Shown here: one piece after another, positions 1-35,773 of the stretch
How positions within the stretch are numbered: the stretch's first letter is position 1
Layout of the letters: every line of letters starts with the position of its first letter
Assembly (NCBI RefSeq): GCF_000203795.2
Contig: NW_006281104.1
Coordinates: 1,326,278-1,390,277 of the forward strand
DNA: 64,000 bases
Direction: 5' to 3'
Origin: Batrachochytrium dendrobatidis JAM81
Lineage: Eukaryota; Chytridiomycota; Chytridiomycetes; Rhizophydiales
Notes under the pieces: generated by a model
What the model was told of the DNA's origin: nothing
The model's database searches: none
Seen by the model: only the letters and a program-made list of their open reading frames with translations
Made by a program: the position numbers and the translations under genes

Positions 1-453
1 ATATCGACTCGGATTCAAAATATACTGACAGGTCCACATCCCGACACCAAGGATCCCACAGTTGCCATATTTTATTCTATTACATCATCTCAACGTGGTA
101 TGTGTTGAACAGTGCATGGTATTTGTGATGGCACGCAGTAGTTTAATGCATGTCATGTATAGGACTAGGAGGTGTGGATGTTAAAGTGCATTGTCTAGTT
201 TAAATACCTGGATCAAGTTTGGTTTGTATTGTATGCTAAATCACTGTTTGAATCGCTTTAGATGATATCTGAGGATACTCGATGGCTTGATGATCCAGAC
301 TTGTCACGTCACTATCAACCCATGATTGAACGGCTGTGCTCTCAATATTTAATTCTGGAAAGCAAGCGATCGTTTGCGCTAGATCCAGTTGGAAACTTTC
401 ATTTTTGAAATGGAGCAGCTATCCATCAATTAAACTGGAGAGCAGACACTTTA
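1..453 (+). pseudogene. Malonyl-CoA decarboxylase remnant (C-terminal part, broken)
   Basis: Three exon-like pieces read as the C-terminal catalytic region of malonyl-CoA decarboxylase, which converts malonyl-CoA to acetyl-CoA. Positions 2-100 encode a stretch ending TVAIFYSITSSQRG before a GTATGT donor. A piece near 169-205 continues GLGGVDV. Positions about 264-453 encode LDDPDLSRHYQPMIERLCSQ and then ALDPVGNFHF, TGA, NGAAIHQLNWRADTLG. The in-frame TGA (406-408) falls inside the conserved NFHL-x-NGA motif. The segment between the second and third pieces, which should carry the SPIPGF-type motif, is absent. The last exon after the donor at 454 is not found. I infer a decayed gene; the 5' part lies outside the window. 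Family identity rests on motif memory, not on a search. Confidence 0.68.
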
Positions 454-559
454 GGTATGTTGTTGAGATTGGACAAGCTGTTATTGGTTTGGTCAATGCT
501 TACCTTTGTTTTCTACGATTATTGGAATGTAATTGTTAGATAAACAGTCAGTGCCATGA

Positions 560-830
560 CATGGTTGACAATACAGTGGTGTTGGTGGTAATTGGCATGC
601 AAACAGCAACTGCATTACTGACATGTGCCATCATTGTTGAACTAGATCGCGATCGTATCTGTGATTCAGAATACAACAAATGGGTGTACAGAGTTGTATT
701 GACAGTCAAACACAATACATGAATATGGGTTCAGAATTGGTGATTGTACAATGTATGACTGTCAAGTGTGTAGAGGGATAGTTTCAGCTGAAGATCAGTC
801 TGTGTGCGTTATATGATGTCCGTTGTGTCT
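560..830 (+). repeat. Dispersed repeat family, copy 1
   Basis: A diverged repeat also seen at about 17795-18040 (+) and, inverted, inside a STAMBP intron at about 59875-59965. The shared core reads roughly GTAATTGGCATGCAAAC, then TTGAACTAGATCGCGA, then TGTAT. No coding potential is visible. It follows directly on the broken decarboxylase and may have replaced its last exon. Confidence 0.5.
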
Positions 831-1269
831 ATTAAAGAGTGGGTCAATGTGTAGTAACAGAGTCGATCAAGCATTCAATTATTTTTGAAGCAAAGCAGTT
901 GTCACAGAATGGGTACCAAAGTGTTTCATTTTTACGTGAATACGGCTTTAAACCAAGCGCTTGTGCAATTACACAACACTCTTGAAGGGTGTGCTTTTCA
1001 AGACACTTGACAAAGGGACGTGTCAGCATGTTGATCCATGTCAACATCAAGCTCATCAATGTGGTACTACGGTTAGGGAGTAGCATATTGTGGTGTAATG
1101 TTAGTTCACTACAAACAATCTAGTAAACCAGCCCTAGCCCTTTTAGGTTACCAACTATACAGGGCTACCATACAAAAAGTATAAATACAAGGAATATGTT
1201 TACTTTTATAATCAACAATATCAGTCTCGGTACTTTTCCATCAACTGCTCAAACCCATCAATCGATCTA
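831..1269. promoter_or_regulatory. Intergenic region with TATA box of the secreted acidic gene
   Basis: TATAAATA lies at 1180-1187, about 85 bases before the ATG at 1270. The other small secreted genes here have a similar TATA-to-start spacing. The rest of the interval shows no convincing gene; an 80-codon minus-strand frame at 844-1086 has no recognisable motif. Confidence 0.5.
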
Positions 1270-1998
1270 ATGAAATTCGTCGACATTTTATTCATACTGA
1301 CTGCAGCAGCAACTGCTAACGCGATACTGATCCCATTTAAAAAAGATGACACATCCCGAGGCCCGCAATACCTAATTGATGGAACTGGTTCAAGAACTTC
1401 CAGTCAAATGCCAGCCCCAACTAATGTAGCTGGGCCAAGCACTTCTAGCCAAGGTCAGCAACACATGGATGAAGCTGGCTCAGGCATTTCTGATGAAGAA
1501 TGGGATGACTTATTTGATGCAGATAGCTCAAGCACTTCCGACGAAGATTGGGATGACGCTGAGTTGGATGATCCAAGTGTTTTCATGCAACGCCATCAAC
1601 AATCAATGGATCAACCCGGTCCAAGCACTTCCAATCAAGACCAGCAAGAGCCAATGGAGGAAGGCGAGTCGGGAAATATTCGTCCAGAAGAAGCACTATT
1701 AGATGAAGAAGATCAACATACCCTTGCTGATCTAAAGAAAAGAGTTAAAGTCGCTGAAAGCAAACAGCGAGGAAAGTGCAGAGCGTACTTTGATTATGTA
1801 TCCCTTGGATTGAAACAAAAATCAGTGCTGGCAAAAACCAAAGTCAAGTTTGGAACAAAGCACAATCCAAGCGTCCAAAGTCAAATGAAACAAGAGTGTG
1901 AAGATGCAAAGAGCAAATTAAAAACTAGAAAACAGCAATTAACAAAGTTTATGGAAGACCATGGCTTGATATTAAAGGCAGAGCCGGAGTCGAATTAA
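1270..1998 (+). CDS. Small secreted acidic protein, function unknown
   Basis: An intronless 242-codon frame. The N-terminus MKFVDILFILTAAATANA is a typical cleavable signal peptide. The mature protein starts with a short basic patch (IPFKKDD). Residues about 40-150 are rich in Ser, Thr, Asp, Glu and Gln, with loose repeats of the type GPSTSSQGQQ, SDEEWDDLFD and SDEDWDD. The last ~90 residues are Lys-rich and probably helical or coiled coil, with two Cys in the segment RGKCRAYF...KQECEDAK. A TATA box sits at 1180, and AATAAA at about 2023 follows the stop. I recognise no enzyme domain. The layout matches lineage-specific secreted proteins of chytrid pathogens, so an effector role is possible but unproved. 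Confidence 0.7.
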   Translation: MKFVDILFILTAAATANAILIPFKKDDTSRGPQYLIDGTGSRTSSQMPAPTNVAGPSTSSQGQQHMDEAGSGISDEEWDDLFDADSSSTSDEDWDDAELDDPSVFMQRHQQSMDQPGPSTSNQDQQEPMEEGESGNIRPEEALLDEEDQHTLADLKKRVKVAESKQRGKCRAYFDYVSLGLKQKSVLAKTKVKFGTKHNPSVQSQMKQECEDAKSKLKTRKQQLTKFMEDHGLILKAEPESN

Positions 1999-2700
1999 AG
2001 ATGTACCAGGACTTGATTTTGAATAAATTTAAACTTTCTAATATCTGTCGAGATTTTTTGATATTTTCAGAATGTTGTGAATGGGTCAACAACCATATCA
2101 TTGATTGATACATTGACACGGTTTATTACATATACATCAATGACTTGATAACAACTAGTGTTGATTGTACGTGTAACTATCAATCATACTTGCAATCACT
2201 TGTCAGTTGCATGATACCATCAACTGATCATGTCGTGTATTGATCAATTAGTGCTGTATCAGTTTGCAATGTAATATACGCGGTGTGATGTTTACGCAGT
2301 AAGTCTCGGTGTATACGCATTACTATGAATGATTGCTACAATCAACGATCCCACAATGTTGGGAGACAAATGTATAAATATAGAGCATGTGTATAAATAC
2401 AAATACCGATCAATACAATAAAGCAGTGCGTTTTGAAATACACCGGGCAGTCTTTTTGGCACATCATTGACTAGTACTTGCTTGATCTTGACAGCAAAGT
2501 AGTTTCTTGTGGGTCAATAAACTCATGTAACAGAAACTCTGTCAGTTCCACATTTTGCAATTACATGTGCATTTTGTATATCTATATAGCTTTTTTTGAA
2601 AACTGATACGGACACGGCTGAATATCAATTTTGTTTTTAGAAATAATTTTATTCCTGTACCAAGCATCCATTACAGCTCTTGATCTTGTGCGATAATATG
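1999..2700. other. Intergenic, no gene supported
   Basis: AT-rich sequence. TATAAATA motifs occur near 2371 and 2389 and AATAAA at about 2417, a promoter-like and terminator-like arrangement, but no frame of useful length follows them. This may be the regulatory leftover of a lost small secreted gene. Confidence 0.4.
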
Positions 2701-3108
2701 TCAATGAATAATAGGCAAACCCCATATGCATTGCTTGTACTTGTCATCAATAACGACTGAATCGGATGACTGTTCAAAAGTTTCTAGTACCAGAATATTA
2801 CTGGCAGCTAATCTAATATGTGAAATATCCATGGTAGCTTCGAACCTGTATCCGTTCCAACAAGAAATATCATCATATTTTGCACCAAGGACTCGTCCAT
2901 GCTCAACGTATGACAGAGTGGGTCCGTTATAGGTGTTCAAGTTGGGAAATGATAGAATTGGGTCGGAAAATACCGATATACTCGCATACCAAACTATTTC
3001 AATCACAATGAATGTGAAAATTAAATGTGTCAATATTTGATTGCAATCCATGGTGATGTCTACATTGATTCTGTCGGTATTGCTTTTACTATAAACAGCT
3101 GGAAACAT
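2701..3108 (-). CDS. Orphan protein with N-terminal hydrophobic segment
   Basis: A 135-codon minus-strand frame. An upstream ATG at 3108 and an internal ATG at 3051 are both possible. From 3051 the protein would begin MDCNQILTHLIFTFIVIEIV, so a signal anchor or signal peptide would sit at the very N-terminus; I favour that start. The remaining ~90 residues look globular (NTYNGPTLSYVEHGRVLGAK, FEATMDISHIRLAASN) with two Cys. An AATAAA on the minus strand lies about 50 bases after the stop. No family recognised. It could be an exon of a longer gene. Confidence 0.4.
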   Translation of the reverse strand: MFPAVYSKSNTDRINVDITMDCNQILTHLIFTFIVIEIVWYASISVFSDPILSFPNLNTYNGPTLSYVEHGRVLGAKYDDISCWNGYRFEATMDISHIRLAASNILVLETFEQSSDSVVIDDKYKQCIWGLPIIH

Positions 3109-3540
3109 ATTCTTTCAGCAAACCAGGTGGATTTTCTGAACGAGTGAATGATCCTGGAAAATCAACTGGACTTGATCTGAAAAAGTCATTTGCATAACGA
3201 AAAAGAGGCACTGCGGTGTGATCAGTATTTTACTAGATTATTGATCAGAGCAGATTATTTTTGGTGGATAATAATTGTACAGTTTTTGGCAACCATTGAT
3301 TCGTTTACTCAGCATGTATGGTACGCTTGTGTATTGTATTCACCCTTTGTATAGGGTGTCTGTGCTTGTAGTACTATCGCTAAGACGAGTAACAAAAGGA
3401 CGGGAATGGAGATAAATGAAGGACTGCCAATAACCATCATCGTATTGCATGTATGAAAAGCCCTTATGATTCAGGACTAAACACATGATGTATTGTGGTT
3501 GTTGATAAAGCATTTTACTCGAGGCCGCTCATCAGTGCAA
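3109..3540. other. Intergenic, nothing recognised
   Basis: No coding frame or motif that I can support. It precedes the duplicated promoter segment of the first proline-rich gene. Confidence 0.4.
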
Positions 3541-3694
3541 TATAAACACGAACGATCATTGTGCTGTTATGCAGGGTGCAAAGCCAGCCCTGATATTAAT
3601 GATCAGATGCTCGATTATATAAACACGAACGATCATTGTGCTGTTATGCAGGGTGCAAAGCCAGCCCTGATATTAATGATCAGATGCTCGATTA
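3541..3694 (+). repeat. 77-bp tandem promoter duplication (2 copies)
   Basis: Two identical 77-bp units (3541-3617 and 3618-3694), each beginning TATAAACACGAACGATC. A third TATAAA starts at 3695, where the sequence becomes unique. Each unit therefore carries a TATA-like element plus a segment (TGCTGTTATGCAGGGTGCAAA) whose diverged counterpart is found once upstream of the paralogues at 8166 and 12766. Confidence 0.85.
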
Positions 3695-3700
3695 TATAAA
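3695..3700 (+). promoter_or_regulatory. TATA box of proline-rich secreted gene A
   Basis: TATAAACCG lies 100 bases before the ATG. The paralogue at 8166 has the same TATAAACCG at 8062, also about 100 bases upstream, and the third paralogue has it in mirror position. Confidence 0.6.
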
Positions 3701-3794
3701 CCGTCGGTCAATTGTCGAGTATAATCTCACAATCGATCGATTTCTCATCACTTCATCACTTCACCGCATCTACCAGCATATTTGACACTCCAAC

Positions 3795-4688
3795 ATGAAG
3801 ATCGATGTTTTTGCACTTGTGTCGATACTGGCCATTTCTGTTCACGCCGAGCTTGTTTCGACCAACAGTATTGCTAATGATAATGGTCTCCGACTTCAGA
3901 AGCGACAGCTTTTTGACAAAATCAAAAAGTTTTTTACTAAAAAACAAAGTGACGGTGATCCCAAGTCGAATCGTCCAAAGAAAAGGTCTAAATCCCCCCG
4001 TAATCCTTTTAAACAATCAAAAAAGAGTGTACCATCATCTCAGTCAGGTGAATCATCTATACCTCCACCACCTGGACCACCACCACCTAAACCATCATCG
4101 CCTAAACCATCACCTCAGTCAGGTGAATCATCTATACCACCATCACCTAGAGCACCACCACTTAAACCATCATCGCCTAAACCATCATCGCGTAAATCAT
4201 CACCGCTTAAACCATCACCTCAGTCAGGTGAATCATCTATACCACCACCACCTAGACCACCACCACCTAAACCATCATCGCCTAAACCATCATCGCCTAA
4301 ACCATCACCACCTAAACCATCACCGCCTAAACCATCACCTCAGTCAGGTGAATCATCTATACCACCACCACCTAGACCACCACCACCTAAACCATCATCG
4401 CCTAAACCATCATCGCCTAAACCATCACCACCTAAACCATCATCGCCTATACCGCCACCACCTGGACCACCACCACCTAAACCACCACCACCTAAACCAT
4501 CATCGCCTAAATCATCACCACCTCAGTCAAATGGGACACCATCTAATGCTAAAAAAGTACCACCACCTAAACCACCTCGATCACCATCTCGATCAACTGA
4601 GATACCATCCACATCTACAAAATTACCACCACCTAAACCACCTCGATCAAAAAAGACATTATCTCTCGGCCCAAACCCAACTCCTTAA
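3795..4688 (+). CDS. Secreted proline-rich repeat protein, paralogue A
   Basis: An intronless 297-codon gene. MKIDVFALVSILAISVHA is a signal peptide. It is followed by a short pro-segment ELVSTNSIANDNGLRLQKR whose Lys-Arg is a Kex2-type processing site. The mature N-terminus QLFDKIKKFFTKK would be a cationic amphipathic helix. The rest (residues ~85-297) is Pro/Lys/Ser-rich, with PPPPGPPPPKPSS blocks and a recurring SPQSGESSIPPPP unit, four copies. The signal peptide, pro-segment and start match the genes at 8166 and 12766; the repeats do not. PxxP and PPxKP motifs could bind SH3-type domains; this is inference. No enzyme domain. Secretion is well supported; function unknown. Confidence 0.78.
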   Translation: MKIDVFALVSILAISVHAELVSTNSIANDNGLRLQKRQLFDKIKKFFTKKQSDGDPKSNRPKKRSKSPRNPFKQSKKSVPSSQSGESSIPPPPGPPPPKPSSPKPSPQSGESSIPPSPRAPPLKPSSPKPSSRKSSPLKPSPQSGESSIPPPPRPPPPKPSSPKPSSPKPSPPKPSPPKPSPQSGESSIPPPPRPPPPKPSSPKPSSPKPSPPKPSSPIPPPPGPPPPKPPPPKPSSPKSSPPQSNGTPSNAKKVPPPKPPRSPSRSTEIPSTSTKLPPPKPPRSKKTLSLGPNPTP

Positions 4689-5649
4689 ATCATTCTCGAA
4701 ATAAAATCTACAGAAGTCCCAAAACGGACTTTAAAATGATGATCATCCTCCATTTAAACCATCACCTAAAAATGAAATTGATTACAAGTAATTACAACTC
4801 TGCACTCGCACAGCAAATGCACAGTGTATTGCTCAATCCATTGTTTTCAAACCCTTTTGGATTCATAACACATTGAATAATGCATACATTTAATAAACTT
4901 GGTGTTGCTGATCAAAATATTGGTGTGTTTACAACTGAATACAACACGAATCAACACAGGTATTTATATTTCAGCGACTCAATATTAGTATGTGTTCAAA
5001 CCATGCACACAGCATCAATCAGGCTGTCATGGCAACATTTTGAACCCATGAACTATCTGTTGTACAACTGCACGATTGGTTCAGGTTAGTATACAGACTA
5101 TATGTCGAATGATCAAACTTTGTCACAACAAGACCAAATGTGACACTGTCCGATATCCGATCAACATCAGCAACAGCAACAGCAGCAGATCGTTTTGCAA
5201 ACTGGTCGTGTCAACAAACCATAGTGTCACTGTAGTCAGGCAACACGATCGATATATGATCATGTCATTCAAACCAATATACAATCTACTGATATTTGCA
5301 AAACATCACCAAACAAAACCCCATCAATTGTACTTGAACTGACAGTAATTTGACACCATTTTAGTAGCAAATGCGCTTTTTGAATGAATGTATTTAAAAT
5401 AAACTCGAGTGTCAAGACAAACTGATATCATGCAAACAAATCATATCCGTACGAGCATATACTGGAAGTGTTACAAGTTTGTCAATCAACTGCTATATGG
5501 CAGTACAGGTGACGGTACCAGAACTGTGTTTGTTACCAATGGTACGATATCAGCACAAACTCGACTAATTGACCAATCAAACAGCCAGTATTCTGTGATT
5601 GGTCACTTCAACTCAAGTATCGACACAACATGACTGACAACACATTATT

Positions 5650-7746
5650 GTCAGTTACATCGAGTGATCATCAAAATATGTCGATTCAAACAGGTTGCAT
5701 ATGACCGACTAATCCAGCATTCATCCATTGTCAAACAACCATAATGCACAATACCACCAAGTGTGCAATCACATTCGCACCGATCAGTCGTTGCACAGTA
5801 TGCATTGGTCAATGTCAAACATATATGTGTTTGCAACTAAATTGCAGCGTATAGCATCAATTGCAGTCCATGACACATTCATACGATCCATACGATCCAC
5901 ACATCCACACGATTCAACATGACAAATCATGTATCATGAGTCCAAAGTTGATCAAAAACCTGATCACGATAAACCCAACATGTTGTTGTGTATCAGAGTC
6001 GATATATCAAGTGACAGTTGCACACTTGCTGATGGTGTACAGCGCATCAGTCACAATACATGTATGGTATTGCATTGCAGTCATCACAGTCATTGGATGA
6101 CAGCCATTTGCAATGTGATATCGATCGACATACATCGGCATGGTGTGATGTGACCATGATCATGATGGAATGTGTTGGAGTTGACATTGTGAGTTGACAA
6201 TCGATACACCATACACATGACTGGAACATATGCATTTGAGTGTNNNNNNNNNNNNNNNNNNNNNNNNNNNNNNNNNNNNNNNNNNNNNNNNNNNNNNNNN
6301 NNNNNNNNNNNNNNNNNNNNNNNNNNNNNNNNNNNNNNNNNNNTAATGGTGATCCAAATTCGTTTCAACAACAAGGTGTTGACAGTTGTGGATTTGTATG
6401 CATTCAATGTGTGTTGCGCATCGTTATTGACTGTCGAGTGTGTATGCAAGTCAAGTCACCACCAATCACTAACCAACAACCACATCCAGTGCGTACATGA
6501 TCATTACTAGAATGACTGCCAAACATATTCGCATCCAAAAGTTGATTGTGAGTTGGTGGTTTGCAAGAGTCGGACACAACTGACATGCTATTGAACACAG
6601 CAACATGATTATAGTCCAGTCGTATGGTGTGATACAGTGGTTCGTGAAACACAATATCCGGATATTTGTAGTGTTGAACACGACGAATCTATTGTTTGTG
6701 TAGCATCACAACGATTGTAATTTGGAATCAAAGTGTTGTGACCACGAATACTGTGTATATCATATTTAGCTACATTAAAGCTTGTTCCGTATTATTCCGT
6801 ATTGTTTCATATTGTTCCACATTGTTTGATGCATTGTTCCATTTATTGTGCAAGTACACCAGATGCCAACTGGAGTGATTGATCAGAGTTGGCAAATATC
6901 ACGATATTGTCGGCATACATGAGTCCTCACACTGATGATTTGCACAATACTCATGCAATGACAATCGGTTGATACCATTGCGCATGTCATTGATGAACAC
7001 GTTGAACAACAATCTGACAATGGACATCACAGCCGGGCTCGACGTTCAATTGTAAATGTGTCGGAAACCAATGGTTCAGCCTGAGCACGAGCTGATGAGC
7101 ATGTGTGCAGCGGTGTTAGCAAGACCAGTGTGCGTGGTGCTAACCACATGTGTTGCAGTTACCATATCAAGGTACCAATCGTGACAGTGTCGAATGCATT
7201 TTGAATGTCAATCAACACAACAATAGTATTGAACTGCACGCACAACCGTTGTTGAACGATATCGACTAGTGAACCAACTTACACAACACACTTGTTTGGT
7301 TTGAAATCGACCATGCTCGGTGGTGACGAGTTTGTTGAGCACCACGATCCATCAATGTGTGTTTGCAAGACCTTGCATACCAGTTTGAGATACACATCAA
7401 TCAGCGTAATACCGTGGCTGTCATTTGTATCAATGTGATCACTGTCATTTTTATGAATGGATACAATGAGTGCAAACTGCGAGTTCAAGTACAATTGATG
7501 GGGTTTTGTTTGGTGATGTTTTGCAAATATCAGTAGATTGTATATTGGTTTGAATGACATGATCATATATCGATCGTGTTGCCTGACTACAGTGACACTA
7601 TGGTTTGTTGACACGACCAGTTTGCAAAACGATCTGCTGCTGTTGCTGTTGCTGATGTTGATCGGATATCGGACAGTGTCACATTTGGTCTTGTTGTGAC
7701 AAGGTTCGATCACTCGACATATAGTCTGTATACTAACCTGAACCAA
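5650..7746 (-). mobile_element. Dead non-LTR (LINE) reverse transcriptase, minus-strand copy
   Basis: Read on the minus strand, this is the same degenerate LINE frame as in 9210-11270. It has a conserved upstream segment with IVSIHKN and HGITLIDVYLKLV, a stop, DIQNAFDTV (RT motif A), LFNVFINDM in another frame, YADNIV (the catalytic YADD with Asp changed to Asn), and a C-terminal Cys/His cluster near 5745-5810. Multiple stops and frame changes show it is inactive. A 100-N placeholder interrupts it. Confidence 0.7.
6244..6343. other. Assembly gap (100 N placeholder)
   Basis: Exactly 100 N. The matching part of the right arm (10613-10669) suggests only about 57 bases are really missing. Confidence 0.9.
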
Positions 7747-8061
7747 TCGTGCAGTTGTACAACAGATAGTTCATGGGTTCAAAATGTTGCCATGACAGCC
7801 TGATTGATGCTGTGTGCATGGTTTGAACACATACTAATATTGAGTCGCTGAAATATAAATACCTGTGTTGATTCGTGTTGTATTCAGTTGTAAACACCAA
7901 TTCAGACCAAACACGTGATGTAGTGATTGCGCACCGGAAAAAATAATCTTGCCTGAAATCGCTCAATACAAGAAGGCGTGAACACAAATAACTACCGTGC
8001 TGTTACACAGAATACAAGACTGACCCTAATATCAATGCTCAAATACTCAAATGATCAAGTA

Positions 8062-8067
8062 TATAAA
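8062..8067 (+). promoter_or_regulatory. TATA box of proline-rich secreted gene B
   Basis: TATAAACCGCC lies about 100 bases before the ATG at 8166. The preceding ~170 bases are the mirror image of the upstream region of gene C (about 12800-13030). Confidence 0.6.
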
Positions 8068-8165
8068 CCGCCAGTTAATTATCAAATATAGAGACAGCAA
8101 TTGATCAGCTTTTCATCACTTTAACTAAACTATCAACTATATTAACATATTTGGAATCGCTCAAA

Positions 8166-8795
8166 ATGAAAAGCGGTACTTTTGCACTTATATCGATACT
8201 GGCTATTTCGGCTCATGCCGAGCTTGTTTCGACCAACACTATTATTGACAATGACTTTCGACTTCAAAAACGACAAGTTCGAAAACTCGTAAGCTTTTTT
8301 AATAACAAACCAGGTGGCAGTGGTACGAAGCCAAGTTTTCCAAAGAAAGGGCCTGTTAACGGCCCTATAAAATCTGTCAAGAGTACTCCTAATGGACCAG
8401 TTTCAATTGGTACCAAGGCCGGAACGTCTGGAAAAAAACCACCTATAGCGCCTAAACCATCACTCGGACCAGGTAATAAATCACCAACACCTCAATCAAA
8501 CGGGACACCACAACAAAAACCACCTATAGCGCCTAAACCATCACTCGGACCAGGTAATAAATCACCAACACCTCAATCAAACGGGACACCACAACAAAAA
8601 CCACCTATAGCGCCTAAACCATCACTCGGACCAGGTAATAAATCACCAACACCTCAATCAAACGGGACACCACAACAAAAACCACCTATAGCGCCTAAAC
8701 CATCACTCGGACCAGGTAATAAATCACCAACACCTCAATCAAATGGAACACCACCACAAAAACCACCTATAGCGCCTAAACCTCAATGGATTTAA
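8166..8795 (+). CDS. Secreted proline-rich repeat protein, paralogue B
   Basis: Intronless. I start at the second ATG (8166), not 8151, because MKSGTFALISILAISAHA then forms the signal peptide exactly as in paralogue A. The pro-segment ELVSTNTIIDNDFRLQKR ends in a Kex2-type Lys-Arg. A short basic stretch follows (QVRKLVSFFNNKPGG), shorter than in A and C. Then come four perfect or near-perfect 27-residue repeats (PPIAPKPSLGPGNKSPTPQS plus NGTPQQK), encoded by an 81-bp tandem repeat at 8439-8762. The frame ends PKPQWI. Downstream bases still encode the C-terminal tail of paralogue C (DGPPSFIPPPPTRNS) in another frame, so B has lost its tail by a frameshift. Function unknown. Confidence 0.76.
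   Translation: MKSGTFALISILAISAHAELVSTNTIIDNDFRLQKRQVRKLVSFFNNKPGGSGTKPSFPKKGPVNGPIKSVKSTPNGPVSIGTKAGTSGKKPPIAPKPSLGPGNKSPTPQSNGTPQQKPPIAPKPSLGPGNKSPTPQSNGTPQQKPPIAPKPSLGPGNKSPTPQSNGTPQQKPPIAPKPSLGPGNKSPTPQSNGTPPQKPPIAPKPQWI
8439..8762 (+). repeat. 81-bp tandem coding repeat, 4 units
   Basis: Units start at 8439, 8520, 8601 and 8682 and begin CCACCTATAGCGCCTAAACC; a partial fifth unit starts at 8763. Units are almost identical in DNA, not only in protein, which points to recent expansion. Confidence 0.88.
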
Positions 8796-9059
8796 GAATG
8801 ATGGTCCTCCTTCATTTATACCACCACCACCAACACGAAATTCATAGAAATCTTAAAACGGACTTTAAAATGATGATCATCCTCCATTTAAACCATCACC
8901 TAAAAATGAAATTGATTACAAGTAATTATAACTCTGCACTCGCACAGCAAATGCACAGTGTATTGCTCAATCCATTGTTTTCAAACCCTTTTGGATTCAT
9001 AACACATTGAATAATGCATACATTTAATAAACTTGGTGTTGCTGATCAAAATATTGGTG

Positions 9060-12000
9060 TGTTTACAACTGAATACAACACGAATCAACACAGGTATTTA
9101 TATTTCAGCGACTCAATATTAGTATGTGTTCAAACCATGCACACAGCATCAATCAGGCTGTCATGGCAACATTTTGAACCCATGAACTATCTGTTGTACA
9201 ACTGCACGATTGGTTCAGGTTAGTATACAGACTGTATGTCGAGTGATCGAACCTTGTCACAACAAGACCAAATGTGACACTGTCCGATATCCGATCAACA
9301 TCAGCAACAGCAACAGCAGCAGATCGTTTTGCAAACTGGTCGTGTCAACAAACCATAGTGTCACTGTAGTCAGGCAACACGATCGATATATGATCATGTC
9401 ATTCAAACCAATATACAATCTACTGATATTTGCAAAACATCACCAAACAAAACCCCATCAATTGTACTTGAACTCGCAGTTTGCACTCATTGTATCCATT
9501 CATAAAAATGACAGTGATCACATTGATACAAATGACAGCCACGGTATTACGCTGATTGATGTGTATCTCAAACTGGTATGCAAGGTCTTGCAAACACACA
9601 TTGATGGATCGTGGTGCTCAACAAACTCGTCACCACCGAGCATGGTCGATTTCAAACCAAACAAGTGTGTTGTGTAAGTTGGTTCACTAGTCGATATCGT
9701 TCAACAACGGTTGTGCGTGCAGTTCAATACTATTGTTGTGTTGATTGACATTCAAAATGCATTCGACACTGTCACGATTGGTACCTTGATATGGTAACTG
9801 CAACACATGTGGTTAGCACCACGCACACTGGTCTTGCTAACACCGCTGCACACATGCTCATCAGCTCGTGCTCAGGCTGAACCATTGGTTTCCGACACAT
9901 TTACAATTGAACGTCGAGCCCGGCTGTGATGTCCATTGTCAGATTGTTGTTCAACGTGTTCATCAATGACATGCGCAATGGTATCAACCGATTGTCATTG
10001 CATGAGTATTGTGCAAATCATCAGTGTGAGGACTCATGTATGCCGACAATATCGTGATATTTGCCAACTCTGATCAATCACTCCAGTTGGCATCTGGTGT
10101 ACTTGCACAATAAATGGAACAATGCATCAAACAATGTGGAACAATATGAAACAATACGGAATAATACGGAACAAGCTTTAATGTAGCTAAATATGATATA
10201 CACAGTATTCGTGGTCACAACACTTTGATTCCAAATTACAATCGTTGTGATGCTACACAAACAATAGATTCGTCGTGTTCAACACTACAAATATCCGGAT
10301 ATTGTGTTTCACGAACCACTGTATCACACCATACGACTGGACTATAATCATGTTGCTGTGTTCAATAGCATGTCAGTTGTGTCCGACTCTTGCAAACCAC
10401 CAACTCACAATCAACTTTTGGATGCGAATATGTTTGGCAGTCATTCTAGTAATGATCATGTACGCACTGGATGTGGTTGTTGGTTAGTGATTGGTGGTGA
10501 CTTGACTTGCATACACACTCGACAGTCAATAACGATGCGCAACACACATTGAATGCATACAAATCCACAACTGTCAACACCTTGTTGTTGAAACGAATTT
10601 GGATCACCATCAGTTTGCTCACTTGTTGCACCGATATGACTGCATGATCAACTGGACACCAACCAAACCACACTCAAATGCATATGTTCCAGTCATGTGT
10701 ATGGTGTATCGATTGTCAACTCACAATGTCAACTCCAACACATTCCATCATGATCATGGTCACATCACACCATGCCGATGTATGTCGATCGATATCACAT
10801 TGCAAATGGCTGTCATCCAATGACTGTGATGACTGCAATGCAATACCATACATGTATTGTGACTGATACGCTGTACACCATCAGCAAGTGTGCAACTGTC
10901 ACTTGATATATCGACTCTGATACACAACAACATGTTGGGTTTATCGTGATCAGGTTTTTGATCAACTTTGGACTCATGATACATGATTTGTCATGTTGAA
11001 TCGTGTGGATGTGTGGATCGTATGGATCGTATGAATGTGTCATGGACTGCAATTGATGCTATACGCTGCAATTTAGTTGCAAACACATATATGTTTGACA
11101 TTGACCAATGCATACTGTGCAACGACTGATCGGTGCGAATGTGATTGCACACTTGGTGGTATTGTGCATTATGGTTGTTTGACAATGGATGAATGCTGGA
11201 TTAGTCGGTCATATGCAACCTGTTTGAATCGACATATTTTGATGATCACTCGATGTAACTGACAATAATGTGTTGTCAGTCATGTTGTGTCGATACTTGA
11301 GTTGAAGTGACCAATCACAGAATACTGGCTGTTTGATTGGTCAATTAGTCGAGTTTGTGCTGATATCGTACCATTGGTAACAAACACAGTTCTGGTACCG
11401 TCACCTGTACTGCCATATAGCAGTTGATTGACAAACTTGTAACACTTCCAGTATATGCTCGTACGGATATGATTTGTTTGCATGATATCAGTTTGTCTTG
11501 ACACTCGAGTTTATTTTAAATACATTCATTCAAAAAGCGCATTTGCTACTAAAATGGTGTCAAATTACTGTCAGTTCAAGTACAATTGATGGGGTTTTGT
11601 TTGGTGATGTTTTGCAAATATCAGTAGATTGTATATTGGTTTGAATGACATGATCATATATCGATCGTGTTGCCTGACTACAGTGACACTATGGTTTGTT
11701 GACACGACCAGTTTGCAAAACGATCTGCTGCTGTTGCTGTTGCTGATGTTGATCGGATATCGGACAGTGTCACATTTGGTCTTGTTGTGACAAGGTTCGA
11801 TCACTCGACATACAGTCTGTATACTAACCTGAACCAATCGTGCAGTTGTACAACAGATAGTTCATGGGTTCAAAATGTTGCCATGACAGCCTGATTGATG
11901 CTGTGTGCATGGTTTGAACACATACTAATATTGAGTCGCTGAAATATAAATATCTGTGTTGATTCGTGTTGTATTCAGTTGTAAACACACCAATATTTTG

Positions 12001-12192
12001 ATCAGCAACACCAAGTTTATTAAATGTATGCATTATTCAATGTGTTATGAATCCAAAAGGGTTTGAAAACAATGGATTGAGCAATACACTGTGCATTTGC
12101 TGTGCGAGTGCAGAGTTGTAATTACTTGTAATCAATTTCATTTTTAGGTGGTGGTTTAAATGGAGGATGATCATCATTTTAAAGTCCGTTTT
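9060..12192 (-). repeat. Large inverted repeat, right arm
   Basis: Reverse complement of 4721-7896. It begins in the 3' flank of gene B and ends in the 3' flank of gene C. It is gap-free, so it can be used to judge the gap in the left arm. Confidence 0.85.
9210..11270 (+). mobile_element. Dead non-LTR (LINE) reverse transcriptase, plus-strand copy
   Basis: A 155-codon frame at 9210-9677 contains ALIVSIHKNDSDHIDTNDS and HGITLIDVYLKLVCKVL, matching the start of LINE reverse transcriptases. After TAA the same frame continues with VVLIDIQNAFDTV (motif A, about 9738-9777). LFNVFINDMRNGIN (about 9945-9985) lies in another frame, and GLMYADNIVIFAN (about 10033-10071) holds the active-site motif with YADN for YADD. 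FNVAKYDIHSI (about 10170) fits the thumb region. Near 11107-11166 a C-x2-C...H-x4-C pattern resembles the C-terminal zinc finger of LINEs. Stops and frameshifts make it inactive. No poly(A) tail or target-site duplication is visible. Confidence 0.72.
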
Positions 12193-12199
12193 AAGATTT

Positions 12200-12766
12200 C
12201 TATGAATTTCGTGTTGGTGGTGGTGGTATAAATGAAGGAGGACCATCATCTTCAAATTTGCTCTGAGGTTTTGGTGGATTTTTTCTTGGTTTTGGTATAG
12301 GTGGTTTAGGTTTAGGCGCTACAGGTGGTGGTGATTTGTTTTGTGGTGGTGGTCTATTGTGTGGTGGTCTAGGTGGTGGTGGTCTATTATGTGGTGGTCT
12401 AGGTGGTGGTAATTGAGATGGTGATTTAGGCAATGGTCCAGTTGCTCCTGATGAGCTAAGTGGAGGTGGCCTATCAGGAGTATTCTTGACAAAATTAGTA
12501 GGGTTGCCAATAACAGGTCTTTCTGGGTTTTTCTTAGGGCGACCAGGGAATTTAGGCCCTTTCTTTGGAAGACTTGGCTTGATACCACTGCCACCTGGCT
12601 TGATACCACCGTTACCTGGCTTTTTATTAAAAAAACCCTTGACTTTGCCAAAAAGCTGTCGTTTTTGAAGTCGAAAGTCATTGTCAATAATAGTGTTGGT
12701 CGAAACAAGCTCGGCATGAGCCGAAATAGCCAGTATCGATATAAGTGTAAAAGTACCGCTTTTCAT
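12200..12766 (-). CDS. Secreted proline-rich protein, paralogue C
   Basis: Intronless minus-strand gene. I choose the ATG at 12766 (not 12781) so that MKSGTFTLISILAISAHA is the signal peptide, as in B. The pro-segment ends RLQKR, a Kex2-type site. The mature protein begins QLFGKVKGFFNKKPG, a basic amphipathic segment like that of A. Then come Gly/Lys-rich (GIKPGGSGIKPSLPKKG) and Pro-rich parts (PPPRPPHNRPPP twice) and a tail DDGPPSFIPPPPTRNS. Its upstream region mirrors that of gene B, so B and C are inverted paralogues inside a palindrome. The repeats differ completely from those of B. Function unknown. Confidence 0.76.
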   Translation of the reverse strand: MKSGTFTLISILAISAHAELVSTNTIIDNDFRLQKRQLFGKVKGFFNKKPGNGGIKPGGSGIKPSLPKKGPKFPGRPKKNPERPVIGNPTNFVKNTPDRPPPLSSSGATGPLPKSPSQLPPPRPPHNRPPPPRPPHNRPPPQNKSPPPVAPKPKPPIPKPRKNPPKPQSKFEDDGPPSFIPPPPTRNS

Positions 12767-13033
12767 TTTGAGCGATTCCAAATATGTTAATATAGTTGAT
12801 AGTTTAGTTAAAGTGATGAAAAGCTGATCAATTGCTGTCTCTATATTTGATAATTAACTGGCGGTTTATATACTTGATCATTTGAGTATTTGAGCATTGA
12901 TATTAGGGTCAGTCTTGTATTCTGTGTAACCACGGTAGTTATTTGTGTTCACGCCTTCTTGTATTGAGCGATTTCAGGCAAGATTATTTTTTCCGGTGCG
13001 CAATCACTACATCACGTGTTTGGTCTGAATTGG

Positions 13034-13410
13034 TGTTTACAACTGAATACAACACGAATCAACACAGGTATTTATATTTCAACGACTCAATATTAGTATG
13101 TGTTCAAACCATGCACACAGCATCAATCAGGCTGTCATGGCAACATTTTGAACCTATGAACTATCTGTTGTACAACTGCACGATTGGTTCAGGTTAGTAT
13201 ACAGACTATATGTCGAATGATCAAACCTTGTCACAACAAGACCAAATGTGACACTGTCCGATATCCGATCAACATCAGCAACAGCAACAGCAGCAGATCG
13301 TTTTGCAAACTGGTCGTGTCAACAAACCATAGTGTCACTGCAGTCAGGCAACACGATCGATATATGATCATGTCATTCAAACCAATATACAATATACAAT
13401 CTACTGATAT
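13034..13410 (+). repeat. Fifth copy of the ~0.4-kb alternating repeat
   Basis: Homologous to about 4935-5290 (+), 7530-7885 (-), 9070-9430 (+) and 11630-11995 (-). It begins GGTGTTTACAACTGAATAC and ends near CAAAACATCATCAAACAAG, where it runs into unique sequence. It flanks gene C on its upstream side; each of genes B and C has one copy on either side, pointing away from the gene. Confidence 0.8.
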
Positions 13411-14265
13411 TTGCAAAACATCATCAAACAAGAACCAACTTTGATCACACAAGAAAGTGGTTGAATGACTTTTATGCAAGTATTGCTTGAACACATGATG
13501 CACACTGATTTATACTGACGGTTTCTGAGAATTTTCGATTATTTTGGGATTCTCACTCTTTTGTTGCTAGCCGTGAAATGATTCTACAACGTAATACTAC
13601 TTCAAGACTTTATTGTATTAAAATTAGAATCATACAGATCAATTTTGTCATTACAGACCAAATTCAAGTTGTACTCAAGCCAAGATTGCAGTTGAATGAA
13701 TTTCAAAAACGTTAATTGTAATACACATTCAATAATGAATTCAAAGATTACTGTCAAGCCAGTAAAATAGTTTAAACCAAATCTAATCACTGATTCAATT
13801 GCTAGTCGATTACAAGTTGAAATTTGTACAAATCAAATACAAAATCAAACTGAATGGTGTGTGCTGTCAATTCAACGTGTTTTAAACTGGTCAATTGAAT
13901 TTAGCAGTTTATCTAATGAAATTATTGAATTGAATCTTAGTTTCAAGTTGATACCAACATGCTCTTTACTGGACCTATAGGTAAAAACATTTGTATAACT
14001 ACCAATTCTACACTTGAAATCAGTGAATATTCAAGACTTGATACACACTTTTATGCAGCATTCACTCATGAATACAATTAAACCTTCTCGTTTGTATAAT
14101 GCCAGACACTAACATCTGAATTATTACAATCTGTTCATCTAGGTTTTTGTAAGTGTTGTCTGTTACATTGACCAACACATCCATTGTACGACTAATTTCA
14201 TACAGTTCAATTCTGGATCTAATACATCAAATCCAAATACTATGAACATGACATTTTATGAATAG
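13411..14265. other. Intergenic, nothing recognised
   Basis: AT-rich, no convincing frame. The first exon of the UBAC2-like gene probably lies in its last 200 bases (a candidate ATG is at about 14070). Confidence 0.4.
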
Positions 14266-15536
14266 CACATGCACCATTCTCGAAAGCAGTATTTGTAATC
14301 ATTGGTGTCAACAGTCTTGTTGCGTCTATTGCAAATGCCAAGAGCAGGCTTCATTTACAACTGTTTCCGCATTTGATTCCACAATGTCAGGTCAGTAGGT
14401 TGACTTTATAGTTATCACGGAGTTGTATGTCTAATCCAGTGTAATGCCTCTGCCATGAACGCTAGCTTTGGAGACTTGTTTCTAGCCATTTCGGTAATCA
14501 GTAACTGTGCAGACTTGTACTGGTTAATGGATTCATAATCATATGCTTACTTCACGTTTCAATCCCATTCGTTTAGTACTATCTTCATCAGCAGAAGTCC
14601 TGTTTGGATCTATACTAATCTATCAATTTCGGCTTTTGGAGCGACAATGGGGATCAGCAAAGTTTGCTGCCTTTTTCACGCTCTCGTCGCTGATTTCAAC
14701 GTGTACAAGTCTTGCGTTTCTTGTCTTGTTCCGTCCATCTGTAGATCGCATTGCTTTGGGACCATTTGGGTTTATTGCAGCTTCAACTGTATTGTACTCG
14801 GTACAAGTACCAGCTTCATACTACTTTAAATTGTTTGGTATTGGCTGGAGCGATCATTCTTTTATCTATATTCTTGCTATGCAGGTAAGCCGAGCTAATC
14901 CATCTTGTGATATAGTATTTTAAATCAATCGCTGATATTTAAACATTACAATGTTTGTATTGATGCTAATCTTGACGGCTGTAGCTGGCTTTTATTTCAT
15001 CTCCTTTGTCGATTTTCGCTTGGGTTGGTGGAATAATAGCAGGAGGAATCTATACAACAAATACTGGAAATATCAAACAATGGCGGTTTCCAACATGGAT
15101 ACGATCTATAGTGTCCTCTTATATTTTACCACTTTTAGAATCTTCCCATGGCGATTCCTCAAATGATGGATCTAATCCACTTTCTACAGCTACTACACCA
15201 GCAGATCAACGGCGTGCTCAGCTGCAACGCACAGTACAACAGCAAATGCAAGTTGCTAGCATGATGGCCGGAATGGCGCCAAGACAAGGCAATACTCCAG
15301 CAGACACAACTGCTGGTGAATCTCCAACAACTGCTCAGACAATTCCAGTTCCAGGTGGTCCAACAGGTTCTACCTCTACACTTTCTTCCCACAATGCTTC
15401 TGAAGTCATTGCAGATCCTCATCTTGTAGAAACTCTCACTGGAATGGGATTCGAGCGCGAGGCTTCCATCGCAGTACTTGTTCAAGCTCGCAACAACCTT
15501 GACACTGCCATTGTGATGTTGGTGGAACATACTTGA
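14266..15536 (+). CDS. UBAC2: UBAC2/Dsc2-like rhomboid pseudoprotease with UBA domain
   Basis: An ER membrane protein of the ubiquitin-ligase/ERAD type (UBAC2 in animals, Dsc2 of the fungal Dsc complex). Exons seen: 14266-14390 (HAPFSKAVFVIIGVNSLVAS...), 14466-14493 (LWRLVSSHF), 14577-14884 (LSSSAEVLFGSILIYQF, ERQWGSAKF, several membrane segments) and 14985-15536. The last exon gives another membrane segment, the basic linker RRAQLQRTVQQQ and a C-terminal UBA domain (VETLTGMGFEREASIAVL, ending IVMLVEHT). SSxExLFGSxLxYxFRxxERQWGS is the family signature. Rhomboid Ser/His catalytic residues are not evident. The short first exon with the ATG is not fixed, so the start is partial. Total about 340 residues, normal for the family. 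Confidence 0.82.
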
Positions 15537-32642: not shown

Positions 32643-35600
32643 TTAGATCATCCATCTCCGCTTTGGATTTCGCGGAGGATGGGGTTGATCTGCGTCAACC
32701 TCGCAGTTGATCTTCCGTTTTTTGGAAGATCGCTCCTTGATACAAGTATCAATGACAGGAGTACTGCTCGTGTTGCGCCGCCGCGCCGCTCGCAGGTCTC
32801 GCTGTTGGTTAAGTAACTCCAACTTTGCAACGTCTTGCAAGGTTGATGCTACTTTAGCAGACCAAGTATTTTTTGGTTTGGTCTGCTTGACCAACTTGGA
32901 GACCTGCTCCGGCTTGACCCGCTTGACAGACCCACGAGCCTTTTTCAGCTCGGTCTGCTTTGCAAGTTTGGGCATCTAAGTGTGAAAATGGTAAAGTTTA
33001 AATGTAAGTCATTGCTGTTAATAATGACATACAAATGCGTCAACTTACTTTTTTTCCAGCCTTGGACTTGGACTTGGCGCTTGGCTGCTCCACTCCTGCC
33101 AGTGTGTCCTTTACCGGATCACACGCATTTGTAGTCTGGTAAAATAAAAAGGATGAGTACAAACATCTATACAATTACTAACCGTTTCAAACATTTCAAG
33201 CACTATTACACTTACATTTAGTGGTTTGGATGGAGCGTCATCCAGAGCGAATCGGACCGTCTTTTTTGGTCGCTCATCCAAAAAAGACTCGGAACTGCCA
33301 GCATTCTGGGATCCTTGCTGTTGCTGCATATGATATCCATCTTCATATGCAGCAATCAGACTCTCCAGGATCTTTCCAAACCCAGCCCCGGTTTGGGAAA
33401 GATGCTGAAGAGTCTCAGCAAGGCGTGGAACTTTGACAGTATCCACCAGAATGCGCACTCCTGGCATGAGGTCAACCTCAATACCTGGGAATGTAGGTGC
33501 TAATGTAATATAAAGTAAACAATTGATTTAGTAAATCACATACATTGATATACCGCTGACATTTAAAACTATATATTACGCGTACCTGGCAGATCCTCGA
33601 CACCCACGGGGATGTCGGTGTCATCCATGTACACGTCAAAATCCATGGGATTTTCGACGTCCATGGGAATCCCGGAGCAATTCGCAACCGGTTCGGTTAT
33701 GTCCACCGAGACATCCGACCGGTTGCATTGCTCCATCGAGTCAACCATGTCCACCGAGTTATTCGACAACAATATGTTGCATAACTGGCGACCTATGGGT
33801 AACTCGCGCAGGAACCCTTGCTTTCGGTAAACTTCCCGGAAGCTGATAGAATCCCTCAGTGATGACATGGGCTGCCACATTCTCAATCTATCAGCTTCAC
33901 CGGGAAGCTTACTGCTTGTGTACATCATCTGGTCAGCCTGTCAAATATAAATGGTTGACACATACCAATAAATAAAACATTAGTCAACCATAACTATACA
34001 GTTGTATCAATCCAGCACAGCTTGTGTAATTTCAAAGCTAAACCCAAGATTTATACTAATACAACCAACTTACTTTATACCGAGTTTCAAAAGGCGGTTT
34101 GTCACACGCCAAAACCCGTTTAGCATAGCTGTATGACAGCATATATGCTTGAGCATCGGTATAATGCTCAACGGGTCCTGATGAATGGCCAGTCACTGCT
34201 GAATCTGGTGCAATGGACTCTGCAGTATATATGGTTGATACTGTAGAGTCACATTGCTTTCCAGACTGCAGTATCATAGCTGCCTCAATCAGGGACGAGA
34301 CTATAATGTAAATATTTTAAAACAATCAATCCATCAGTCAATATAATCAGTATAGTTACCATCAACACACTACAGCCTAAACAATCCACAATACATGCAT
34401 TCACACCCAAAACTCGTGAGAAATTGATACAAAAATCACACACTTACTTGGTGAAGTAGGGATTCTTGGATCATTGATTGCACTGATTGGACTGATTGGG
34501 CTGGATGTATACATATCAGTATATATGTTTTCCTGATTTGAACTAGTCAATCACAACATTACAAAATTATTCACAAACAACAGTAAAAGTTTAAAGTAGC
34601 ATTCAACCCATTGTCCCATAAATCAAATTAGGCATCAACCAATTCAATCCCAAATAATAATCAACCAGCACATCATACCAGCCAACACAAATCACAATTG
34701 ATACACATTGAATGACGTTCAATGACATTAGATAGCATCAAAAACAGTCAAAATCATTACCATCAAAGTCGCGTAGTCGAATCAACAAAATTAAATTCGG
34801 CAACGTTTCGAGTCCATCCCAAAATACCGTAAATGCAATCATCAAATCGTAAATAATACACATGCAAGTAAACAGTCATGTTAGCAATGTGCTGTGTAAC
34901 CAAAATACAATATTCAGATGCACAACTATAATACAAATACTGTACTGCATACCTTTCTGGATTCATGCTTGCTTCGGCAAGGTGTGGTGCATTTTCACAA
35001 GTATTGGTTGGTTGGGGAATAGTGTTTTGCACACTACGGCGAGGCTGTCTTGGAGAACCAGCCGATAAGATGTTGAGACGGGACCACAGTGAATTCATTA
35101 TTGGTATTTGTAGGGTGTCAGGAAATGAAGATGGAAAACGAGTTGATCTCGAAACTTGATAACAATAATATGGGTAGCAGTTGTAATAGTTGCAATAGTT
35201 GCTGCAAACTAATACGTTCAAACAAGTAGTGTGTATGACTGTTTAACAAAATACACAAGGGAAGCAATCAGATCTGAGATTTGGATCAATAGGTAGATGG
35301 ACAAGCGAGTTTTGGATCAATAGGTAGATAGGCAAGTAAGATCTTGATCAACAACTAATAATGGTGTCGGATCTGGACAAACGATGCACTATTTAACTGA
35401 AACAATTGACATGCGAATCCCCGACAAGCCAAACTCTCAGCACGTAATAATCAAATACATTGCAAAAACGTCCCGTAATAATCAAACTATCATCAATTAA
35501 TTCGTTATTTTACCTTGAATCCCAGACTCCGCACGCATCGACCTCGTGGAATCGAGTAACACAAACTAGCTGCATTAATGCATCAACACATAATACTTTG

Positions 35601-35773
35601 AGTTGATTGGACCATATCATCATCATCCCTCCGACTCTGACGGATCGGGGATCTATGTGCCAGCTTGAAGTGTGTGGGGTGGCTGGGTAGTGCGGTGAAC
35701 GTTCCCAATAGTCAATCCATGTACGATGGACAATGCGTAATGCTGTGCTGCTGACAACTCCTGCAGCGGTCAT
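32643..35773 (-). CDS. Unrecognised multi-exon gene, probably nuclear
   Basis: A set of minus-strand exons with good splice signals. First: 35773 to about 35512 (MTAAGVVSSTALRIVHRTWI...GVWDSR). Then about 35125-34955 (RFPSSFPDTLQIPIMNSLWS...), about 34302-34077 (MILQSGKQCDSTVSTIYTAE, KRVLACDKPPFETRYK), about 33940-33588 (MWQPMSSLRDSISFREVYRK, ending VGVEDLP), about 33500-33213 (PTFPGIEVDLMPGVRILVDT...KTVRFALDDAPSKPLN), about 33135-33052 (TTNACDPVKDTLAGVEQPSA) and about 32975-32643. The last is strongly basic (KKARGSVKRVKPEQVSKL, SSKKRKIN, NPKRRWMI), suggesting nuclear localisation. I do not recognise the family. Linkage of the first exon to the second is uncertain. The 5' two thirds is duplicated at 45287-47217. 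Confidence 0.55.

What the first reader, a model, noticed from the sequence alone, without database searches (positions are those of the whole stretch)
4721..13410. Secreted proline-rich genes held in a nested palindrome built from repeats and dead LINE copies
Five copies of one ~0.4-kb sequence alternate in orientation. Genes B and C each have one copy on both sides, pointing outward, and gene A has one downstream. Between them lie two inverted copies of a dead LINE. This makes a 3.1-kb inverted repeat (4721-7896 / 9060-12192) inside a larger gene B/gene C mirror image. Genes with a fixed secretion leader and freely changing repeats thus sit in recombination-prone cassettes. I infer this layout may copy, invert and diversify secreted proteins. 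It is the best candidate in the window for an undescribed arrangement.
Basis: partly seen in the sequence, partly recalled or inferred. Interest (0 to 1): 0.75.

Follow-up and report, generated by a model that had tools for sequence, protein, structure and literature searches.

The report
LINE-bearing palindrome around three secreted genes
In the amphibian-killing chytrid fungus, three related genes for probably secreted proline-rich proteins sit in a DNA mirror image apparently made by local copying, where the surrounding DNA is nearly identical but the protein tails differ; it looks like a striking local rearrangement rather than a genome-wide gene-shuffling system.

Summary
The layout is in the sequence. 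Five ~0.4-kb copies (R1-R5) alternate in orientation at 96-99.8% identity; two inverted, 99.9% identical copies of a dead, 5'-truncated LINE lie between R1/R2 and R3/R4, giving a 3.1-kb inverted repeat (4721-7897 / 9059-12192) around gene B. The left arm contains a 100-N assembly gap, so contiguity is unproven. The genome is Batrachochytrium dendrobatidis, evidently JAM81. Near-identical R copies were found only here (5 of 5; capped searches). R-like DNA is an old dispersed family: 73 other listed elements, none within 10 kb of the three leader genes outside this locus. Best reading: inverted duplication about R, an old LINE in the short spacer, then ectopic conversion copying LINE and R into gene A's 3' flank. 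B and C promoters match 266/266 and 3' flanks 259/263, but tails only 210/362: flanks look homogenised, tails do not. 'Copy' is supported, 'invert' is possible, 'diversify' is not shown; the one resolved length difference among public gene B sequences is an exact loss of one of its own repeat units. Near-identical R-like pairs occur at four other loci, three with recognisable ORFs between, not all secreted.

The parts
3795..4688 (+). gene A, 297 aa, shared leader then proline-rich repeats
   Evidence: ORF; no Pfam family; leader alignment
4704..4924 (+). 3' flank of gene A, of the B/C type from 4721
4925..5346 (+). R1
5347..7475 (-). LINE copy W1 (5'-truncated, dead) with about 30 bp of non-LINE spacer at its 3' end; holds the N gap
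6244..6343 (.). assembly gap of 100 N inside the left arm, opposite 57 bases (10613-10669) of the right arm
7476..7897 (-). R2, next to the gene B promoter
7898..8165 (+). promoter region of gene B, identical to that of gene C at 266 of 266 aligned bases
8166..8795 (+). gene B, 209 aa, leader plus four 27-aa (81-bp) units
8796..9058 (+). 3' flank of gene B, with AATAAA at 9026-9031
9059..9480 (+). R3
9481..11536 (+). LINE copy W2; reverse-transcriptase motifs readable by eye across frames, with stops
9475..9484 (.). possible target-site duplication, 5' side (CGCAGTTTGC); overlaps the first bases matched as LINE
   Evidence: best 10-mer edit distance 1, 8 of 300 random pairs as good; the pair was picked by eye
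11538..11546 (.). possible target-site duplication, 3' side (CGCATTTGC)
   Evidence: as above
11567..11988 (-). R4
11989..12199 (-). 3' flank of gene C
12200..12766 (-). gene C, 188 aa
12767..13032 (-). promoter region of gene C
13033..13436 (+). R5, the most diverged R

Best explanation
This is a local inverted segmental duplication whose non-coding parts are kept alike by ectopic recombination, with an old LINE inside. Inferred order: (1) a leader gene with R in its flanks was duplicated head to head about R, giving gene B - 3' flank - R3 - short spacer (about 35 bp) - R4 - 3' flank - gene C. (2) A 5'-truncated LINE inserted in that spacer. (3) Break repair or template switching, using R and the 3' flank as homology, copied the block R-LINE-R plus C-type 3' flank in inverted orientation between genes A and B, ending at 4721 in gene A's 3' flank. 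(4) Later conversion kept the arms alike. Alternating inverted R copies are what repeated switching between inverted repeats would leave. The tails escaped homogenisation and change at least partly by gain and loss of their own repeats. Shown: identities, boundaries, and that the near-identical R copies found are all here. Inferred: order of events, conversion as the agent, the LINE's insertion in the spacer.
For: Identity is a mosaic. B against C: R 389/397 (32 gap columns), promoter 266/266 (2), leader 137/150 (3), tail 210/362 (118), 3' flank 259/263 (0). Tail codons 91-209 have dN 0.61 and dS 0.53, and 9 of 31 fourfold sites differ, on an uncertain alignment, so silent sites there are old while flanks look young. 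Gene A against B: promoter 148/256 (the best local match, 3638-3989, is 70.3%), yet A's 3' flank is about 99% C-type from 4721. Arm differences cluster: 6 in 399 bases (4721-5119) against 3 in 2,678 beyond; the cut was chosen after seeing the data, and 5 of 1,000 random placements gave a cut as extreme (3 of 1,000 without the gap-edge base). At R sites 185 and 191 R1 shares R5's base against R2-R4; at 176 R1, R2 and R5 agree against R3/R4. The LINE differs from the majority of eight other copies at 173 of 1,740 sites (those where at least 6 of 8 agree), while those copies are 92-95% alike and W1/W2 99.9%. A TSD-like pair brackets it. The order gene - 3' flank - R-like - LINE tail also occurs at a C9 paralogue of gene A, at 66% (flank plus R) and 77% (LINE tail).
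Against: The left arm carries an assembly gap, and a recent paper suggests that an older assembly of another Bd strain held false duplications (PMC11797018). Fresh duplication of an already old LINE, without conversion, would also give 99.9% identical copies. In codons 38-90 none of 13 fourfold sites differs although 27 of 123 bases do, which fits amino-acid change there rather than plain age. The TSD match is weak (8 of 300 random pairs as good). At C9 the LINE tail runs in the sense of the gene, as behind gene B but unlike behind gene A. Only one assembly could be read at DNA level.
Confidence: 0.6

Rival explanations
1. Assembly artefact, in whole or part: the left arm (R1-LINE-R2) is a misplaced or collapsed copy, or a second haplotype of a diploid genome joined in inverted orientation.
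For: A 100-N gap lies inside the left arm where the other arm is continuous; beyond 5119 the arms differ at only 3 of 2,678 bases, one at the gap edge. PMC11797018 suggests that many M36 genes of an older JEL423 assembly were incorrectly identified duplications (passages; it does not mention JAM81).
Against: R1 has its own variants (5 differences from R4 in 422 bases; shares two bases with R5 alone), and the R1-LINE junction lies 228 bases beyond the last of them (5119 to 5347), within a usual Sanger read (inference). Gene B is also annotated in JEL423 and BDV3 sequences and gene C in QVD99, so B and C exist outside this assembly.
Confidence: 0.22
2. A working diversification locus: inverted arms let cells flip gene B or convert leaders and flanks between cassettes while tails vary, giving a changing set of secreted proteins.
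For: Identical promoters, near-identical leaders up to the KRQ site (2 differences in 111 bases) and unlike tails; gene B length differs between public sequences by one exact repeat unit.
Against: Only six family genes were found and three lie outside any such palindrome; no inverted allele or expression switch was seen; R-like pairs also flank ORFs that do not look secreted.
Confidence: 0.1
3. R is the terminal repeat of a DNA element that carries genes or the LINE as cargo.
For: R copies are inverted at both ends of gene B, of gene C and of each LINE block; inverted R-like pairs also flank an ORF at C2 and a gene at C31.
Against: The sequences outside R around the second LINE block are themselves inverted copies, not short direct repeats; R-like pair orientation differs (outward at C2, inward at one C31 site, direct at another); no transposase-like ORF was seen by eye among those of 1-15,500.
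Confidence: 0.04

Closest known systems
LINE-flanked M36 metalloprotease genes of B. salamandrivorans (two-speed genome; PMC9926174, passages)
   Same: Genes for secreted proteins beside LINE copies that have lost their domains; ectopic recombination between repeats proposed as a source of duplications; uncharacterised repeats downstream of the genes.
   Different: There dispersed and many; here one palindromic locus with three genes. Whether R is related to BatrREP-1 or -2 was not tested: no sequence of them was seen.
Inverted-repeat template switching with arm homogenisation and spacer inversion (PMC8604942, abstract and outline)
   Same: Predicts alike arms and a spacer that can flip.
   Different: Described for short inverted repeats in yeast; here arms are 3.1 kb with a 1.16-kb spacer holding a gene.
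Origin-dependent inverted-repeat amplification, inverted triplications (PMC4689423, abstract and outline)
   Same: Interstitial copies in inverted orientation without loss of flanks.
   Different: No plasmid intermediate or origin is known here; copies are mosaic in identity.
Gene-conversion palindromes such as those of the human Y chromosome (recalled)
   Same: Long inverted repeats kept near-identical.
   Different: Far shorter; between B and C the identity stops at the coding tails.
Non-LTR LINE (class features recalled)
   Same: Reverse-transcriptase motifs, 5' truncation, short A-rich 3' end, possible target duplication.
   Different: Dead: frame broken by stops and shifts.

Membership tests
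inverted segmental duplication with homogenised arms | near-identical inverted arms at one locus | tested here: met
inverted segmental duplication with homogenised arms | identity mosaic with tract edges, not uniform divergence | tested here: met
   arm differences clustered, 5 of 1,000 random placements as extreme
inverted segmental duplication with homogenised arms | present in the living genome, not only in the assembly | not testable with these tools
   no reads or other Bd DNA were at hand; N gap in the left arm
non-LTR LINE | reverse-transcriptase domain | tested here: inconclusive
   Motifs read by eye across frames; the RVT_1 search gave 3 matches, all elsewhere, none in this family's listed places; no Pfam hit on two pieces
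non-LTR LINE | 5' truncation and dispersed copies | tested here: met
   38 other places among 40 of 94 candidates scored; eight fetched copies all extend upstream of the window copy's start, six for about 2.5 kb without interruption
non-LTR LINE | target-site duplication | tested here: inconclusive
   10-mer at edit distance 1; 8 of 300 random pairs as good
genome-wide leader-gene cassette flanked by R | R flanks most genes with the leader | tested here: not met
   R-like flank at 1 of the 3 leader genes outside the locus, on one side only
genome-wide leader-gene cassette flanked by R | R found mainly beside such genes | tested here: not met
   near-identical R 5 of 5 here, but R-like DNA at 73 other listed elements (counted), none within 10 kb of the three outside leader genes by coordinates
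DNA transposon with terminal inverted repeats | short target duplication outside the repeats, and a transposase | tested here: not met
   flanks of the second LINE block are inverted copies of each other; no transposase-like ORF by eye in 1-15,500; no dedicated search was made
inverted triplication by ODIRA or DUP-TRP/INV-DUP (the latter recalled) | pre-existing short inverted repeats at the junctions | tested here: inconclusive
   R copies are at the junctions, but whether they came first is unknown

The most novel reading that the evidence does not exclude
Bd has a local copying process that spreads ~0.4-kb intergenic sequences to both sides of a gene and keeps each locus's copies private and nearly identical. 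Here it has built a self-homogenising palindrome in which promoter, leader and 3' flank are shared while the mature tail is exempt: a natural module-exchange locus for secreted proteins.
Probability: 0.13. Interest if true: 0.7.

Novelty: new member of a known kind. Interest (0 to 1): 0.38.

Why it matters
If the palindrome is real it is a compact place to measure ectopic conversion in an amphibian pathogen: promoters with no substitutions beside tails at 58% identity separate homogenisation from tail change. It also shows that duplicated secreted genes in older Bd assemblies need a long-read check. The locus-private R-like pairs at four other loci raise a separate question of how short intergenic copies spread locally.

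Tried and rejected
R as a piece of the LINE: an ORF reads smoothly across the 9480/9481 border, but other LINE copies have different sequence upstream of that point, so the border is a join. R as a transposon end: disfavoured because the outer flanks are inverted copies and pair orientation varies. R as a marker of leader genes: rejected by genome searches (lists capped). LINE identity by Pfam: RVT_1 did not reach this family. One Rfam family hit in each arm is below its gathering score (26.4 against 39 bits) and is taken as chance. Print: no paper holds any of the four locus tags searched (0 papers). Listings (11 of 11; 12 of 12; 12 of 12; 12 of 351) show no paper that, by title and start of abstract, describes this locus; more than that is not claimed.

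How often R-like elements have a private near-identical partner, against random stretches, could not be tested. Four pairs within 5 kb were seen among 73 elements, from lists cut at the 40 scored of 120, 139 and 157 candidates; at least three of the four loci (C2, C3, second C31 site) were fetched because they were paired, and at the fourth both copies were visible before it was fetched, so this is no rate.
Full report
Source. The window lies in a 23.49-Mb, 33-contig genome, on contig C27 of 1,484,462 bases. Homologues of gene B are named Batrachochytrium dendrobatidis. The JAM81 protein P0003 has a longest contig of exactly that length and is reproduced from the window by removing one 219-base GT-AG stretch (8473-8691) from gene B. 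The window is therefore taken as the JAM81 assembly.

Anatomy. Gene A (3795-4688, +), gene B (8166-8795, +) and gene C (12200-12766, -) share a leader ending in a KRQ site; none has a Pfam family. That the leader is a signal peptide and KRQ a processing site is inference. R1 to R5 alternate in orientation. A LINE copy lies between R1 and R2 (minus) and between R3 and R4 (plus). The arms 4721-7897 and 9059-12192 pair, with gene B in a 1.16-kb spacer (7898-9058). The left arm has a 100-N gap opposite 57 bases of the right arm. R3 starts 28 bases after an AATAAA (9026-9031); R2 and R5 instead lie upstream of promoters.

R. In the whole genome five near-identical copies were found, all here. R-like DNA is dispersed: one search lists 35 rows outside the window (40 of 120 candidates scored), mostly a ~120-base core at 75-80% identity, at least 13 of the 35 within 50 kb of a contig end (by hand from coordinates and the contig lengths). 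With two R-like queries from other loci the lists hold 73 distinct elements outside the window. Among ten fetched core loci, in five the core belongs to a longer repeat, 89-93% alike over 0.9-1.4 kb. Four pairs lie within 5 kb, and each pair is nearly identical: C2, 404 bases inverted, 94%, around a 550-aa coiled-coil-like ORF; C3, 460 bases inverted, 98%, with only short ORFs between; C31, 389 bases direct, 98%, with two ORFs between; C31 again, 467 bases inverted, 99.6%, around a tyrosinase-like gene (the coiled-coil and tyrosinase labels are recalled from motifs, and the C2 ORF has no Pfam hit). At C15 a 422-base direct pair (96%) lies next to an R-like stretch. At least three of the four pairs were fetched because they were paired, so no rate is claimed. 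Of the R-like loci fetched without regard to a partner, L041, L036 and L037 showed no near-identical pair holding the R-like stretch.

LINE. One search finds the interior in 38 other places (52 rows less 3 from the window and 11 continuation pieces; 40 of 94 candidates scored), at 77-87% identity. Of eight copies fetched with more upstream sequence, six run about 2.5 kb further, the limit compared, one about 1.8 kb and one in rearranged pieces; so this copy is 5'-truncated at about 9481. Reverse-transcriptase motifs can be read by eye across frames with stops; RVT_1 did not detect the family. The copy differs from the majority of eight others at 173 of 1,740 sites, 140 of them transitions in both directions, while the others are 92-95% alike, so it is older or a separate subfamily. 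W1 and W2 are 99.9% alike. CGCAGTTTGC before and CGCATTTGC after the copy may be a target-site duplication; 8 of 300 random pairs are as good. If true, the LINE sits in a spacer of about 35 bases between R3 and R4.

Mosaic identity. B against C: R 389/397 (32 gap columns), promoter 266/266 (2), leader 137/150 (3), tail 210/362 (118), 3' flank 259/263 (0). To KRQ there are 2 differences in 111 bases; codons 38-90 have 27 in 123, none at 13 fourfold sites, with dN and dS both 0.26; codons 91-209 have dN 0.61, dS 0.53 and 9 of 31 fourfold sites different, on an uncertain alignment. Gene A's promoter is 148/256 like B's, yet from 4721 its 3' flank is about 99% C-type. Arm differences cluster near the outer end: 6 in 399 against 3 in 2,678 bases; with the cut free, 5 of 1,000 random placements are as extreme. 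(One search had used 2,675; the p-value, 3e-4 for that cut, is unchanged.) R1 and R5, the outermost copies, share bases at two sites against R2-R4 and, with R2, at a third. Together these favour repeated exchange among non-coding flanks, with the tails left out. Recent duplication followed by unusually fast tail change is the alternative within the same picture, and the fourfold sites of codons 38-90 lean that way.

Relatives. Six leader-family genes were found: A, B, C and single genes on C9, C26 and C16 (the C16 match is weak, E 0.01-0.12). The C9 gene is a short (85 aa) paralogue of gene A with a conserved upstream stretch (77%) and promoter-leader (84%), a 66% 3' flank plus R-like stretch from about 125 bases past its stop, and then a LINE tail. 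C26 has only an R core 2.7 kb away; C16 has no R hit but a LINE fragment about 2 kb away. So gene - 3' flank - R-like probably predates the palindrome, and LINE pieces lie within a few kb at two of the three other loci. With LINE pieces at dozens of places in 23.5 Mb, two of three is suggestive only.

Other sequences. P0001 (BDV3) equals gene B minus one 27-aa unit. P0002 (JEL423) is 171 aa. P0004 (QVD99_007618) is 83% identical to gene C by BLASTP with 10 gap positions in 190. Gene A has no counterpart in the protein set: one search returned one protein, the gene C homologue. These show that B and C are annotated outside JAM81, not that the palindrome is there. Whether BDV3 and QVD99 are other strains was not established.

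Literature. Wacker et al. (PMC9926174, passages) describe LINEs beside M36 genes in Bsal, propose mitotic ectopic recombination, and report no RIP signature and one LINE/RTE-X family in Bd. Helmstetter et al. (PMC11797018, passages) suggest many M36 genes of an older JEL423 assembly were incorrect duplications. PMC8604942 and PMC4689423 (abstracts and outlines) give template-switching and inverted-amplification mechanisms. In Farrer et al. 2017 (PMC5364385, passages) the terms 'inverted' and 'proline' do not occur in the main text.

Verdict. The most likely account is ordinary in kind (local inverted duplication, LINE insertion, conversion), striking in form, and must be checked with long reads.

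Noticed in passing
window 33843-37165 and 45287-48583: A 3.3-kb direct duplication at 98.1% identity; between the copies lies a long ORF (41079-42875, no Pfam hit) that contains the window's second 100-N gap (41117-41216). Possible further assembly or duplication problem.
   Followed up: no
window 8473-8691, gene B repeats: The JAM81 gene model is reproduced by a 219-base GT-AG 'intron' inside the 81-bp repeats, so the model may be spurious or splicing may be optional.
   Followed up: partly
window 3540-3624 and 3617-3701: A perfect 85-base direct duplication (overlapping by 8 bases) lies upstream of gene A.
   Followed up: no
L035 and L036 (C9:186000-203000): Three copies of a 209-aa secreted-looking gene in 90-97% direct duplications beside the gene A paralogue, each followed on its downstream side by a LINE 3' piece.
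   Followed up: partly
L057 (C31:1037900-1042300): A 467-base inverted pair at 99.6% identity surrounds a tyrosinase-like multi-exon gene (label recalled).
   Followed up: partly
L058 and L059 (C18): A 1.2-kb direct pair at 99.2% identity, about 10 kb apart on a 16-kb contig.
   Followed up: no
window 8775-8830 against the gene C end: Gene B stops earlier than gene C; the DNA matching C's last codons continues in B's 3' flank (by eye).
   Followed up: no
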